Shown: positions 32,869 through 42,143 of the stretch, piece after piece
How the letters are laid out: every line of letters begins with the position of its first letter
Numbering within the stretch: the first letter of the stretch is position 1
NCBI RefSeq assembly: GCF_036010665.1
Contig: NZ_CP108581.1
Span: 2,173,501-2,237,500 of the forward strand
Reading direction: 5' to 3'
DNA from: Microbispora sp. NBC_01189
GTDB lineage: Bacteria; Actinomycetota; Actinomycetes; Streptosporangiales; Streptosporangiaceae
Length of the DNA stretch: 64,000 nucleotides
Position numbers and translations under genes: made by a program
The notes under the pieces: model-generated
What the model was told of the DNA's origin: nothing
The model's input: the letters and a program-made list of their open reading frames with translations, nothing else
The model's database searches: none

Positions 32869-34044
32869 TCACCCGCCGGCGGCCAGGGACGTCGCCGAGG
32901 CGCCGCGCGAACCGTCCGGCGTCCGGAGCGCCCGGGTGACCGAACCGGTCCGTCGCGCGGTGCCCCACATCCACTCGACGCTCGCCTCGGCGCGCCTGCG
33001 CGCGAGCCAGTCGTCGAAGACGCGGTTCTCGATCGCCCGCCGGGTCTCGTCGTCGAGGACGGCGGGGCGCACCTCCAGTACGCAGGTGACCAGCGGCTCC
33101 GGCCCGTCGCCGAGGACGTCCCCAGCACCGGCGCCGACGGCGTCCGGGCCGAGTTCGCGGCGGTACACGAGCGCCGGCCGGACGTCCGCGCCGTACTCGA
33201 AGGACTCTTCGGCGACCTTCGCGAAGGTCTCCGCCCGGGCCTCTTGGGCGGCCTTCGGGAAGGTCTGTCCACGAGTTTCCGCGGCGTCCTTCCCGGCGGC
33301 CGGGGCGAGCGGACCGCTCCCGGGCCGTGCGCGGTCCCGCAGCCGCCCGGCCGCCGCCCGGGCGGCTTCGAGGTGGGGATACCGCAGGCGCACCACGCAC
33401 AGGCGGTCGTGGTCACCCGGGTCGGCGGCGAACAGTTCGGCCGCGCCGTCGGCGGCCACCCGGCGGCGCAGCCGGGCGATGGCGGCCTCCTGGTGGACGA
33501 TCATCTCCAGCGACGCGTGGTCGAGCCCGCGTTCCGCCATCCAGTCACGGGTGGCCCGCACGGTGAGCAGGCGCCGGGACCGCCGGAAGGCGTCCATCGC
33601 CTCCTGAAGCTCCTCGGCGGACAGCTCGACCGGCTCCCGCTCCAGCTCCTGCTCCACCAGGGCGGCGTTCACCAGGCGGGCGGCCGTCGAGCTGTCCCCC
33701 CACAGCCCGTCGAGCACGGCCATGGCCTGCTCCATCCTGACGTCCACGCCGTCGACGCGGACGACGACCTGCTCGCCAGCGCCGTGGCTGCCGCGCAGCG
33801 GCCACGGGACGGCCCGGGCCGGTGCGAACGCGACGGACACCGTGCCGTCCGGCGCCGGGATCAGCAGGTCGTAGTGGTGGCTCCCGCCGGGATGGTCGCG
33901 CTGCCAAACGAGGCGCATCGGCACGTCCGGATGCCCGGCCCGCAGGTCGCCCAGCAGGCGCCTCGCGTCGGCCGGCTCGGCGCCGGAGACCCGGCGCAGG
34001 AAGGCCAGGGCGTCGTTCAGCAGGTGGTCGGGGAAAAGCGGCAC
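32869..34044 (-). CDS. PpiC/SurA-related putative peptide-maturation protein (TIGR04500-like)
   Basis: 391 residues and no signal peptide, so cytoplasmic. Residues about 90-200 look like the helical chaperone domain of SurA/PpiC isomerases (VRVDGVDVRMEQAMAVLDGLW, then VEQELEREPVELSAEELQEAMDAFRR). Then comes a degenerate region with an Ala/Glu-rich linker and a C-terminal alpha/beta stretch. I recall this as the putative peptide maturation system family TIGR04500, found beside ATP-grasp or other RiPP enzymes. The GTG start lies one base after the ATP-grasp stop, so the two genes are coupled. A plausible role is binding or presenting the precursor peptide. No catalytic site is evident. The family name is from memory and should be checked by profile search. 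Confidence 0.75.
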   Translation of the reverse strand: MPLFPDHLLNDALAFLRRVSGAEPADARRLLGDLRAGHPDVPMRLVWQRDHPGGSHHYDLLIPAPDGTVSVAFAPARAVPWPLRGSHGAGEQVVVRVDGVDVRMEQAMAVLDGLWGDSSTAARLVNAALVEQELEREPVELSAEELQEAMDAFRRSRRLLTVRATRDWMAERGLDHASLEMIVHQEAAIARLRRRVAADGAAELFAADPGDHDRLCVVRLRYPHLEAARAAAGRLRDRARPGSGPLAPAAGKDAAETRGQTFPKAAQEARAETFAKVAEESFEYGADVRPALVYRRELGPDAVGAGAGDVLGDGPEPLVTCVLEVRPAVLDDETRRAIENRVFDDWLARRRAEASVEWMWGTARRTGSVTRALRTPDGSRGASATSLAAGG

Positions 34045-34045
34045 G

Positions 34046-35053
34046 TCAGGCTCCTCGCAGGAGGTGTTCGCAGATGGCCTCGCTGATAGGGAGGCCGGTG
34101 AGGTGCTCCACCCACAGCCACTGCGCGTTGGGGTTCACTTCGAGGAAGACGTGACGGCCCTCGGGGGTGAGGATCAGGTCGATCGCCCCGTACGTGAGGC
34201 CGAGCCGTTCCATGAGGGTGAGACAGCGCGCGGCGACGTCGTCCGGCAGGCGGTGCGGACGGTGCGGGGTGACCCGCGTGTCGTAGCGCCGCCAGTCGAC
34301 GGCGGACCGGTTGGACACCTGGGAGTGGATCTCCGCGGCGAAGATCCGGCGGCCGACGACGGTGACGCGCAACTCCAGGCGCTTGTCCACCCGCTCCTGC
34401 ACGATCATCGGGCAGAACCGCAGCCCGTCGGCGTACGCCAGGTCGCGGGGCGACACCGGCTCGCTGAGACGCGTGACCGTGAGGCCGTCGCCGACGCCCT
34501 CGATGAAGGGGATGTGGAACGTCTTGGTGATGACGCGGCCGTCGTGCCGCTCGTGGAACTCGAAGAACGACTCAGGGTCCGTGGTGATCAGCGTGTCCGG
34601 TACGGCGAAACCGAGCTCCGCCGCGAGGGCGAGCTGGGAGGCCTTCTGCCCGGACCGGCGCCAGACCGACTCGCGGGCGGGCAGTTGCGGGCACGGCAGG
34701 TGCTCCCACAGATCGCTGAGCAGGCTCTGGCACTCCCTGGCCGCGTGCGCGGCGACCGCCGGGTCGGTCAGCTCCGGATGCGGGGCGGGCGGGCTGGGAC
34801 GGCGCCACCACAACGCGGTGACCGTGTCGAGCGCGATCTCCTCCGCACCGCCCCGCAGGAGGCGCGTCATGCGCCCGTCCGCCGCGTAGCCGACCTCCAC
34901 CCTCCAGGAGACGGGGAAGCCGCCGGGGTCGAAGACGGTGACCCGCGCGCCGCGCTCGGCGAGCAGGGCGCCGACACGGTCGGCGTGGGGGTCGTCCTCA
35001 CCCGTGAGGACGAGAACATGCGGAGATGGCAAAGCCGGGCCTTTCGTGATCAC
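34046..35053 (-). CDS. ATP-grasp ligase, graspetide-type RiPP maturase
   Basis: 335-residue ATP-grasp enzyme of the MvdD/PsnB kind, which joins side chains of a precursor peptide by ester or amide bonds using ATP. N-terminal LVLTGEDDPHADRVGALL is the typical opening. KASQLALAAELGFAVPDTL marks the central domain, and VITKTF and MIVQERVDKRLELRVTVVG surround the nucleotide site. FLEVNPNAQWLWVE is the C-terminal metal-binding signature of this family. Start: a GTG at 35053 has no clear ribosome site. A TTG at 35032, preceded by AAAGG, would remove seven residues and fits the usual N-terminus better. It lies between the precursors and the PpiC-like gene and is probably co-transcribed through the hairpin at 35063-35086. 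Confidence 0.9.
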   Translation of the reverse strand: MITKGPALPSPHVLVLTGEDDPHADRVGALLAERGARVTVFDPGGFPVSWRVEVGYAADGRMTRLLRGGAEEIALDTVTALWWRRPSPPAPHPELTDPAVAAHAARECQSLLSDLWEHLPCPQLPARESVWRRSGQKASQLALAAELGFAVPDTLITTDPESFFEFHERHDGRVITKTFHIPFIEGVGDGLTVTRLSEPVSPRDLAYADGLRFCPMIVQERVDKRLELRVTVVGRRIFAAEIHSQVSNRSAVDWRRYDTRVTPHRPHRLPDDVAARCLTLMERLGLTYGAIDLILTPEGRHVFLEVNPNAQWLWVEHLTGLPISEAICEHLLRGA

Positions 35054-35144: not shown

Positions 35145-35297
35145 TCAGAGGGCGATGTCGTCCCAGGAGCACATGTTGCCGCCGTACGAGCCCGTGTTGT
35201 ACTCGGGCCACATGCCGCCGCTGACGCCCCGCAGGGTCTCCTCGTCGAGTTCGGCGCCCACGGCGTCGATGTCGGCGAGAACGGTCCGCACAGTCAT
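35145..35297 (-). CDS. RiPP precursor peptide 2 (50 residues, GG leader)
   Basis: Leader with VGAELDEETLRGVSGG, then a 22-residue core starting MWPEYNTG and ending SWDDIAL. The leader segment VGAELDE..L.G.[NS]GG and the core elements M[YW]P[DE] and S.DD[VI] are shared with the neighbouring precursor, while the middle of the core differs. GAGGAGA lies about 7 nt before ATG. The GG fits cleavage by the C39 exporter across the intergenic region. The core has Ser, Thr, Tyr and Asp/Glu side chains suited to ATP-grasp cross-linking, but which bonds form is unknown. Confidence 0.87.
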   Translation of the reverse strand: MTVRTVLADIDAVGAELDEETLRGVSGGMWPEYNTGSYGGNMCSWDDIAL

Positions 35298-35314
35298 TCC
35301 GGTGTCTCCTCGTC

Positions 35315-35470
35315 CTAGCAGTAGACGTCGTCGCGGCTACTGGCCCAGCCGGTGTAGCTGTAGGGCCCGTCGGGGTACATTCCGCCGTTGATCCCCTGGA
35401 GCCGGCTCTCGTCCAGCTCGGCGCCGACCTCGGAGATGTCGCGCAGCTCCGTGCGCGGGTCCTTGCCCAT
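35315..35470 (-). CDS. RiPP precursor peptide 1 (51 residues, GG leader)
   Basis: First gene of the RiPP operon. The leader contains VGAELDESRLQGINGG. The 21-residue core starts MYPDGPYSYTG and ends SRDDVYC. AAGGAGGGAG gives a strong ribosome site. The core keeps the M-aromatic-P-acid start and the DD pair near the C-terminus seen in precursor 2, and it ends in Cys. Precursor 2 begins 17 nt downstream. Assignment rests on size, the GG site, the duplicated leader, and the adjacent ATP-grasp and C39 genes. Confidence 0.88.
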   Translation of the reverse strand: MGKDPRTELRDISEVGAELDESRLQGINGGMYPDGPYSYTGWASSRDDVYC

Positions 35471-35487: not shown

Positions 35488-35514
35488 GTACGGGAGCCGG
35501 GGAGGCTCCCGTAC
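35488..35514 (-). promoter_or_regulatory. Perfect 11-bp inverted repeat ahead of the RiPP precursors
   Basis: GTACGGGAGCC, 5-nt loop, GGCTCCCGTAC, 18 nt before the first precursor start. It could be an operator or a stabilising 5' hairpin. The rest of the 244-nt divergent region to the exporter start shows no clear -35/-10 pair to my eye. Confidence 0.65.
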
Positions 35515-35714: not shown

Positions 35715-37865
35715 ATGAGGTTCAATCGCACGAGGGTCCCGCTGCTGTTCCAGGACTCCATGACCGAGTGCGGCGCCGCCTGCCTCGCCATGGTCCTCGG
35801 AGCGTACGGTCACCACACCACGGTCCGCACGCTGGCGGACGAGATGGGGATCGGGCGCGACGGCGGGACCGCTCTCTCACTCATCCGGGCGGCGCGCCGG
35901 CGAGGCCTCACCGCACGTGCCTTCTCCCTGCCCGCGGACGCGGTCCGGCACGTCCCCCTGCCCGCCGTGGCCCACTGGGAGTCCCGCCACTTCGTCGTCG
36001 TCGAGGCCCTCGGGCGTGGCCGCGTCACGATCGCCGACCCGGGAACGGGGCGCCACCGGATCAGCGCCGAGGAGTTCGCCGAGTCCTTCAGCGGGGTCGT
36101 GCTCGTCTTCGAACCGGGGCCGGAGTTCGCCCGCGGGCGGTTCGGGACCGCGCGGAGCCGCTCGTGGCTCCAGTTCATCCGTACGGCGTTCGCCGCGCGG
36201 CGGTCGCTGGTCGCCCTGCTGGCCCTGCTCAGCGTCCTGACGCAGGCGTTCGGGCTCGTCCTGCCCGTCCTGACCGGGCTGATCGTCGACCGGGTCGTCC
36301 TCGCGGGCGAGCGGGACCTGATCACCGCCCTCGGCGCGGGCCTGCTCGCGGTCTTCGCCGCGCACACGGCGGTGGGGGTGCTGCGCGCGTTCACGCTCGC
36401 GGCCCTGCGCGTCCGCGCGGACGCCGACCTGCTGGAGATCACCGCGACCCGCCTGCTCGCGGCGCCGTTCCGGTTCTTCGCCGGGCGGACGTCGGTGGAC
36501 CTGTCCAACAAGGTCATGGGGACCGTGCTGATCAGGGAGATCGTGATCGGCCAGGCCCTCCTCGCGGTCTTCGACGGCCCGCTGGCGCTGGGATACCTGG
36601 TCACGGTGGCCGTGCGCAGCCCGCTGACCGGCGCCTGCCTGCTCGCCTTCGCGGCGGCCCAGATCGCCCTGCTGCTGGCCACCCGGCGGCACGTGAGCGA
36701 CCTGGCCCGCCGCGAGGCGGACACGCGCAGCGACGTCCAGGGCCGGCTCGTCGAGGTGGTGCGGGGCATCGAGAGCATCAAGGCCTCGGGTTCCGAACCC
36801 CGCGTCCGGCACCGGTGGACGAAGCTGCTCGCGGTGTACGTCGCCCGGGCCGGGCGCAGCAGCCGGGCCCAGGGCCTGCAGCAGGCGGTGTTCGACGCGC
36901 TCAGGTTCACGGCCCCGCTGGTCCTGGTCTGGGTCGGGGCGCGGCAGGTCGTCGGCGGGGAGATCTCCCTGGGAGAGATGCTCGCGCTGCAGGCCCTCGC
37001 GGCCGTCGCGCTCTCCCTGCTGTCCTCGCTGATCGGCGGCCTGCGGGCACTCCAGACCGCCCGGCCGTACGTGGACCGCCTGGCCGACGTCTGGGAGGCC
37101 GAGACGGAGCCGGTCCCCCCGGACGCGGTGACCGCCGAGGTGAGCGGCCGCGTCAGCGCGGAGGGCGTGGGCTTCCGGTACACGGCGTCGGCGCCCTGGG
37201 TGGTGCGGGACGTCAGCGTGGAGGTGGCGCCGGGCCGGAAGCTCGCCCTGGTGGGCCGGTCGGGCTCGGGCAAGACCACCCTCGCCCGGGTGCTGCTCGG
37301 GCTCTTCGCCCCGGCCGAGGGGGAGATCCGCTACGACGGCCTCCCCGCCTCCCGCTTCGACCCGGGCGCGCTGCGCCGCCAGTTCGCGGTGGTGCCGCAG
37401 GAACCCGTGCTGTTCACCGGCACGATCGCCGAGAACATCGCGCTGAACGCCCCGGGCGCGCCGGCCGAGGAGATCGCCGAGGCGGCCCGCCTCGCCTGCG
37501 TCCACGACGACATCATGGCCATGCCCATGGGGTACGGCACCCTGCTCGCCGAGGGGGGCGGCCTGTCCGGAGGGCAGCGGCAGCGGGTCGCGCTGGCCAG
37601 GGCCCTGCTGTCCAGGCCGAGGCTGCTGCTCCTGGACGAGGCCACCAGCCACCTCGACACGGCGACGGAGGCGGCGATCGAGGCCAACCTCGCCGGGCTG
37701 GACATGACGCGCATCGTCATCGCCCACCGGCTGAGCACCGTGCTGGACGCCGATCTCATCCTCGTGCTGGAGGCCGGCCGGGTCGTGGAGGCCGGCGGTC
37801 ACGCCGACCTGCTGCGGGCGGGCGGGCCGTACGCGCGCCTGGCCGGCGGCTCACCGCGGTCGTGA
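35715..37865 (+). CDS. C39-peptidase ABC exporter (PCAT type) for the RiPP
   Basis: 716 residues. The N-terminal C39 protease cuts after the GG of leader peptides: Gln13, Cys19 in QDSMTECGAACLAM, His near 94 (RHFVVVEA) and Asp near 110 (IADPGTG). A six-helix membrane domain follows (about 150-440). The ATPase domain has Walker A GRSGSGKTT (about 515), signature LSGGQRQRV (about 616) and Walker B LLLLDEAT (about 638). It would cleave and export the two modified precursors in one step. It is divergent from the precursor-enzyme operon across 244 nt, and its own ribosome site is weak (GCGGGA). The catalytic residues all appear intact. Confidence 0.94.
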   Translation: MRFNRTRVPLLFQDSMTECGAACLAMVLGAYGHHTTVRTLADEMGIGRDGGTALSLIRAARRRGLTARAFSLPADAVRHVPLPAVAHWESRHFVVVEALGRGRVTIADPGTGRHRISAEEFAESFSGVVLVFEPGPEFARGRFGTARSRSWLQFIRTAFAARRSLVALLALLSVLTQAFGLVLPVLTGLIVDRVVLAGERDLITALGAGLLAVFAAHTAVGVLRAFTLAALRVRADADLLEITATRLLAAPFRFFAGRTSVDLSNKVMGTVLIREIVIGQALLAVFDGPLALGYLVTVAVRSPLTGACLLAFAAAQIALLLATRRHVSDLARREADTRSDVQGRLVEVVRGIESIKASGSEPRVRHRWTKLLAVYVARAGRSSRAQGLQQAVFDALRFTAPLVLVWVGARQVVGGEISLGEMLALQALAAVALSLLSSLIGGLRALQTARPYVDRLADVWEAETEPVPPDAVTAEVSGRVSAEGVGFRYTASAPWVVRDVSVEVAPGRKLALVGRSGSGKTTLARVLLGLFAPAEGEIRYDGLPASRFDPGALRRQFAVVPQEPVLFTGTIAENIALNAPGAPAEEIAEAARLACVHDDIMAMPMGYGTLLAEGGGLSGGQRQRVALARALLSRPRLLLLDEATSHLDTATEAAIEANLAGLDMTRIVIAHRLSTVLDADLILVLEAGRVVEAGGHADLLRAGGPYARLAGGSPRS

Positions 37866-41729: not shown

Positions 41730-42143
41730 TTAGTTGTAGTAGCCGTCGCAGCAGTCGTATCCCCAGACGGCGTTGGCCCAGAGACAGTTGTCCCACCAGG
41801 AGTCATTCCACGAGGGAATGACACTGCCGCACGTCTCCCCGTACCCGTAGGAGGAGGTGGTGCGCCAGTTGTTGAAACTGTTGTCGGCGGTGTTGTTGAT
41901 ACCGACGGTGGAGTGGCCGTCTCCGTATCCGGTGGTGCCGCACGGGTTATGGGCGGTGGTGCGCCAGTTGTCGAAGCTGTTCGCGAACGTGTTGTTGAAC
42001 AGGACTTCTTCAGCCGGGCTCGAGTATCCGTATTCCATTGGAGCGGTCGCCGCGCCCGCGGCCGCGGCGCTCAGCGTGAGAGCGCCACCGGCGAGCGCGG
42101 TGGAGAATGCGAATCCGGCGATGACCTTCTTGAGCTTGGGCAT
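41730..42143 (-). CDS. Small secreted protein with NWRTT repeats
   Basis: 137 residues. The signal peptide is clear (MPKLKKVIAGFAFSTALAGG..., cleavage near AAAGAATA). The mature part of about 100 residues holds two copies of an NSF[DN]NWRTT motif 34 residues apart, four Cys, and an aromatic, Asn-rich C-terminus with SWWDNCLWANAVWGYDCC. GAGGGGGACACGA precedes ATG. The composition (Asn, Gly, Tyr, Trp, small) suggests a surface or assembly-forming protein, but it is not a chaplin or rodlin that I recognise. No function assigned. Confidence 0.83.
   Translation of the reverse strand: MPKLKKVIAGFAFSTALAGGALTLSAAAAGAATAPMEYGYSSPAEEVLFNNTFANSFDNWRTTAHNPCGTTGYGDGHSTVGINNTADNSFNNWRTTSSYGYGETCGSVIPSWNDSWWDNCLWANAVWGYDCCDGYYN

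What the first reader, a model, noticed from the sequence alone, without database searches (positions are those of the whole stretch)
35145..35470. Two precursors share leader and core ends but differ in the core middle
Both peptides contain VGAELDE..L.G followed by GG, then cores starting M[YW]P[DE] and ending near S.DD[VI]. The middle of the cores varies (PYSYTGWAS versus NTGSYGGNMC). Conservation of the DD pair and the aromatic-Pro-acid start suggests these are sites of ring formation or recognition, with a variable loop between them. This does not match the core motifs I know for described graspetide groups.
Basis: seen in the sequence. Interest (0 to 1): 0.75.

Follow-up and report, generated by a model that had tools for sequence, protein, structure and literature searches.

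The report
Two-ring graspetide precursors with DD acceptors
A soil actinobacterium (Microbispora) carries genes for two tiny peptides that an ATP-grasp enzyme and a helper protein very probably tie into ring-shaped molecules; the kind of pathway was described in 2026, but the ring-site pattern (Ser/Thr-x-Ser/Thr/Cys ... Asp-Asp) is not the one published for it.

Summary
The two peptides are real. They are encoded at 35470-35315 and 35297-35145 (minus strand) as the first two genes of an operon with an MvdD/TIGR04187-like ATP-grasp ligase and a TIGR04500 SurA/PpiC-like protein, beside a divergent C39-peptidase ABC transporter. This is the gene set of graspetide group 21 (rosaritide), in which the TIGR04500 partner was shown to be essential (PMC13097080). 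The Asp-Asp pair is invariant (13 of 13 distinct cores in this enzyme clade). The M-aromatic-Pro-acid start is not: only the window's A and the near-identical B share it. I predict two macrolactones closing on the Asp pair, probably nested. Enzymes with this motif form a supported clade distinct from rosaritide-like ones. Rosaritide's third donor/acceptor pair is absent, and the second donor is Cys in several homologues. Core A changes much faster than its neighbours between sister species, sparing all four ring residues. No product was tested. Verdict: a new variant of a known kind, moderately interesting.

The parts
35315..35470 (-). Precursor A: leader MGKDPRTELRDISEVGAELDESRLQGINGG, core MYPDGPYSYTGWASSRDDVYC; predicted donors Ser8 and Thr10, acceptors Asp17 and Asp18
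35145..35297 (-). Precursor B: leader MTVRTVLADIDAVGAELDEETLRGVSGG, core MWPEYNTGSYGGNMCSWDDIAL; predicted donors Thr7 and Ser9, acceptors Asp18 and Asp19
34046..35053 (-). Graspetide synthetase (ATP-grasp; matches TIGR04187 and MvdD/MvdC models below cut-off, Pfam PF21068 above it; DWR motif and conserved Lys/Arg/Glu/Asn present)
32869..34044 (-). TIGR04500 partner protein (over cut-off, 293 bits; SurA-like by profile and by predicted fold)
35715..37865 (+). Peptidase-containing ABC transporter (C39 peptidase + ABC; NHLM type), divergent; expected to cut after GG and export
35489..35514 (-). Hairpin TACGGGAGCC-TCCCC-GGCTCCCGTA just upstream of the Shine-Dalgarno site of precursor A (approximate ends); stem core conserved in five further Microbispora loci; role unknown

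Best explanation
The locus makes two paralogous graspetides. The leader (around VGAELDE..L.G..GG) binds the ATP-grasp/TIGR04500 complex. The ATP-grasp enzyme phosphorylates the two adjacent C-terminal Asp side chains, and the two hydroxyl donors spaced i/i+2 (A: Ser8, Thr10; B: Thr7, Ser9) attack them, closing two macrolactones. By analogy with rosaritide (Ser9-Asp26 outside, Thr11-Asp24 inside) the rings are probably nested: inner Thr10-Asp17 and outer Ser8-Asp18 in A, inner Ser9-Asp18 and outer Thr7-Asp19 in B. The C39 transporter cuts after GG and exports the product. Shown here: the genes, their homology, the conservation of donors and acceptors, and the clade. Inferred: the reaction, the ring number, nesting, export and activity. 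A protease-inhibitor or other antagonistic role is only a guess from other graspetides and from the fast change of core A.
For: Family matches; intact catalytic motifs; the same gene set with TIGR04500 shown essential in rosaritide (PMC13097080). 13 of 13 distinct cores in the clade keep [ST]x[STC]...DD. The L010 core A has exactly two hydroxyl donors and two acceptors, so it can form at most two ester rings. The enzymes with these cores form one supported clade (99/83) sister to a clade with one-donor cores (100/98). Window versus L006: core A has about 9.5 non-synonymous differences on 51 sites against 28.5 on 1530 in the transporter and 8 on 742 in the ligase, yet Ser8, Thr10, Gly11, Asp17 and Asp18 are unchanged.
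Against: No mass or structure data. Extra Ser (A: Ser14, Ser15; B: Ser16) and Glu/Asp4 could take part. In B of other Microbispora and in two A cores the second donor is Cys, so a second ester is not possible there with that residue. The 13 cores are few and related, and most come from one genus. Nesting rests on analogy with spacing in rosaritide, not on alignment.
Confidence: 0.7

Rival explanations
1. Only one ring is formed, between the first donor and one Asp, as the single conserved Thr of the sister DPPG clade suggests; the second position (Ser/Thr/Cys) serves another purpose, for example a disulfide in the Cys-bearing homologues.
For: Sister-clade cores such as RPRLIALTQVDPPGYCAMD have one Thr donor. 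B cores of L008-L010 and L018 hold two Cys (positions 10 and 16), and A of L018 holds two (10 and 21).
Against: Position 10 is only ever Ser, Thr or Cys. A of L011 has a single Cys there and window B keeps Cys15 without a partner, so the Cys residues do not come and go as a pair. Both Asp are invariant.
Confidence: 0.15
2. Three linkages as in rosaritide, with an additional Ser (Ser14/15/16) and Glu/Asp4 as third pair.
For: Window A and B both have an acid at core position 4 and extra Ser near the C-terminus; rosaritide has three rings.
Against: The acid at position 4 and the extra Ser are absent in L010 A (YNPNAARTRSGAGYDDYLC), which lacks any third acceptor.
Confidence: 0.1
3. The conserved Asp pair and donors are enzyme-recognition or chance features inherited by close relatives, and the peptides are modified elsewhere or not at all.
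For: Most loci come from one genus; G010 keeps the enzymes but no detectable precursor.
Against: Core A diverges strongly between sister species while these residues stay; conservation extends to Planomonospora and Microtetraspora.
Confidence: 0.05

Closest known systems
Graspetide group 21, rosaritide (MirA/MirB/MirC/MirD, Micromonospora rosaria; PMC13097080)
   Same: Same four gene types: precursor with C39-type site, TIGR04187-like synthetase, TIGR04500 partner, NHLM-type transporter; donors near core positions 8-11 with an i/i+2 pair; Asp acceptors near the C-terminus
   Different: Core 21-22 aa; two adjacent Asp instead of Asp22/24/26; no Ser-Ser donor pair; second donor Ser/Thr/Cys; two divergent precursors per locus; enzymes in a separate clade from the rosaritide-like relatives found here (MirB itself was not available for the tree)
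Plesiocin (group 2 graspetide)
   Same: Two donors and two adjacent acceptors, ring within ring (hairpin pattern stated in PMC13097080; residue details from general knowledge)
   Different: Repeated TTxxxxEE-type motifs (recalled, not tested here), Glu acceptors, different leader and no TIGR04500 partner
Streptosporangiaceae DPPG-core loci (sister clade, e.g. L013, L019)
   Same: Same leader type, ligase and TIGR04500 partner; closest enzymes
   Different: Core T..[DN]PPG.C..D with one conserved donor; 0 of 20 cores carry the two-donor DD motif

Membership tests
Graspetides (ATP-grasp RiPPs) | MvdD-type ATP-grasp ligase encoded beside the precursor | tested here: met
   PDB profile hits to AMdnB, CdnC and related ligases
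Graspetides (ATP-grasp RiPPs) | Side-chain ester or amide linkages in the product | not testable with these tools
   needs mass spectrometry
Graspetides (ATP-grasp RiPPs) | Conserved donor (Ser/Thr/Lys) and acceptor (Asp/Glu) residues in the core | tested here: met
   13 of 13 distinct cores; the second donor is Cys in 5 of the 11 A and B cores
Group 21 (rosaritide-like) | TIGR04500 partner next to the synthetase | tested here: met
   293 bits against a cut-off of 180; present in L006-L011, L014 and L018
Group 21 (rosaritide-like) | NHLM-type peptidase transporter | tested here: met
   C39 peptidase and ABC domains; TIGR03796 best NCBIfam match but below its cut-off
Group 21 (rosaritide-like) | Rosaritide donor/acceptor pattern (Ser8, Ser9, Thr11 / Asp22, Asp24, Asp26) | tested here: not met
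   cores are 19-23 aa with Asp-Asp
Group 21 (rosaritide-like) | Synthetase falls in the published group 21 similarity cluster | not tested
   MirB sequence and the published network were not available; the tree has rosaritide-like loci only
TIGR04497 GRASP_targ_2 precursors | Score over the curated cut-off of 32 bits | tested here: not met
   25.1 (B) and 20.4 (A) bits, leader only

The most novel reading that the evidence does not exclude
In the homologues with Cys at the second donor position, the synthetase closes a native macrothiolactone (Cys-to-Asp thioester) next to an ester ring, so that the DD clade would contain graspetides with a natural thioester, which I found no report of; the window's own peptides carry Ser/Thr there and would be the all-ester versions.
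Probability: 0.17. Interest if true: 0.65.

Novelty: new variant of a known kind. Interest (0 to 1): 0.42.

Why it matters
It defines a short two-donor, two-acceptor core for partner-dependent graspetides, small enough that one homologue leaves only two possible pairings. That makes the role of the TIGR04500 protein and the rules of ring choice directly testable, and the Ser/Thr/Cys exchange at one donor asks whether nature makes thioester graspetides. The fast change of core A beside an unchanged core B in sister species suggests diversifying pressure on one product only.

Tried and rejected
The aromatic-Pro-acid start as a conserved element: rejected by homologues. The neighbouring Dpg/halogenase/NRPS genes (5.7-32.6 kb) as part of the pathway: rejected as a conserved part, because in M. 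triticiradicis (L007) homology to the window stops at about 32861, just after the TIGR04500 gene, while the other side stays collinear. MirB for the tree: not obtainable; a class-wide TIGR04500 search of 395 genomes found 14 positive genomes, 13 of them in the window's own family, and none gave a MirA-like core. Plasmid copies: none. Promoter and terminator scans: nothing. Paper search for natural Cys donors: nothing relevant. The L007 ligase comparison is out of frame because of a 3-base length difference and was not used.

Full report
Observation. Their leaders share VGAELDE..L.G..GG and match the leader part of the NCBIfam precursor model TIGR04497, below its cut-off.

Setting. Directly downstream lie an ATP-grasp ligase (34046-35053) and a TIGR04500 protein (32869-34044); a C39-peptidase ABC transporter (35715-37865) is divergent. 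The ligase keeps the conserved Lys, Arg, Asp-Trp-Arg, Glu and Asn positions of its relatives and its profile finds the solved microviridin-type ligases. The TIGR04500 profile finds SurA (E 2.4e-6), and the predicted model (mean pLDDT 79.5, pTM 0.62) has Cj1289 and SurA as best Foldseek matches (E 6e-6; TM 0.3-0.4, so only part of the fold is shared). The same nearest match was reported for MirC (PMC13097080).

Known system. PMC13097080 (2026) describes graspetide group 21: MirA, MirB (TIGR04187), MirC (TIGR04500) and MirD (transporter) of Micromonospora rosaria. MirB alone did nothing; MirB with MirC made three macrolactones, Ser8-Asp22, Ser9-Asp26 and Thr11-Asp24. The window has the same gene set. 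Its genome also holds a more rosaritide-like locus (L002, core RKFEWSSQVMTPDGSIDAKDLDF).

Comparison of homologues. Eighty loci came from one scan with the ligase, more from genus and family searches. The window lies in Microbispora: L006 (M. amethystogenes) is 95% identical over 12.8 kb. Precursors were read from the loci. In the ligase clade that holds the window (L006-L011, L018, L014; support 99/83) plus the precursor L106, whose ligase was not placed in the tree, all 13 distinct cores end in Asp-Asp followed by 2 to 5 residues and carry [ST]-x-[STC] upstream. The sister clade (11 ligases) has one-donor DPPG cores, 0 of 20 with the motif; other TIGR04500 loci have it in 3 of 35. I wrote the motif after seeing these cores and the sequences are related, so the shuffle probabilities (0.002-0.017 per core) describe and do not prove.

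Ring count. The A core of L010, YNPNAARTRSGAGYDDYLC, contains one Thr, one Ser, no Lys, no Glu and exactly two Asp. If it is a graspetide substrate with Ser/Thr donors, it can carry two ester links at most, and they must involve these four residues. By alignment the same positions in the window are Ser8/Thr10 with Asp17/Asp18 (A) and Thr7/Ser9 with Asp18/Asp19 (B). Nesting is inferred from the i/i+2 donors of rosaritide.

The Cys question. The second donor is Thr or Ser in the A cores of window and L006-L010, Cys in A of L011 and L018, Ser in B of the window, L006 and L007, and Cys in B of L008-L010 and L018. It is never anything else in A and B. Since A of L011 has one Cys only and window B keeps Cys15 without a partner, a fixed disulfide does not explain the pattern well. 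A thioester is possible but unproven; A of L011 and L018 also have a neighbouring Thr or Ser that could serve instead.

Rates. Between the window and L006 core A has about 9.5 non-synonymous differences on 51 sites, the A leader 2 on 65, core B 0 on 54, the ligase 8 on 742 and the transporter 28.5 on 1530. Core A differs from the ligase (Fisher p 1.5e-8) and the transporter (1.2e-7; counts rounded). The seven changed residues spare Ser8, Thr10, Gly11, Asp17 and Asp18; with seven changes in 21 positions that alone is not unusual (about 0.1 by chance). Whether this is positive selection or a replaced segment cannot be told from three sequences.

Boundaries. In M. triticiradicis (L007) the region from about 32.86 kb to 40.96 kb is collinear with the window, but the homology ends just after the TIGR04500 gene. 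The DpgA/B/C, halogenase and NRPS genes on that side are therefore a neighbour, not a conserved part of the graspetide operon.

Limits. Function and product are untested. MirB was not available, so whether this clade lies inside the published group 21 or is one of the other published groups with a transporter is open; the paper mentions 19 further groups, whose logos I could not see. The claim of a new core pattern therefore means: different from the one characterised member, not shown to be absent from published tables.

Noticed in passing
window 35489-35514: An 11-bp hairpin upstream of precursor A (z -2.7 for the 66-nt stretch); GGGAGCC-N4/5-GGCTCCC is at the same place in L006-L010 but not in L011, L018 or L014. 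Possible operator or mRNA-stabilising element.
   Followed up: partly
window 5697-32568: Giant NRPS (5822 aa frame), ABC exporter, CmlS-like halogenase and DpgA/DpgB/DpgC: a dihydroxyphenylglycine-type NRPS cluster abutting the graspetide operon, absent beside it in L007.
   Followed up: partly
L128 and L089 (genome G010): Same ligase, TIGR04500 gene and transporter but no detectable precursor; the TIGR04500 frame carries a repeat-rich N-terminal stretch. Possibly a decayed locus.
   Followed up: partly
window 35715-37865 versus L008-L011: The transporter is divergent from the precursors in the window, L006 and L007 but co-directional and upstream in L008-L011 and L018: an inversion within the clade.
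   Followed up: no
own genome, L002, L003, L158: Four TIGR04500 matches in one genome, one of them beside a rosaritide-like precursor, one a partial match.
   Followed up: no
window 41730-42143 (-): Small predicted secreted protein with repeated NNWRTT-like stretches and several Cys; no family searched.
   Followed up: no
L041, L043, L049, L069 (Nannocystis): Two precursors per locus with TIGR04500; cores such as QAPATKTNEGGGDTDDYA also have a TxT ... DD arrangement, perhaps arisen independently.
   Followed up: no
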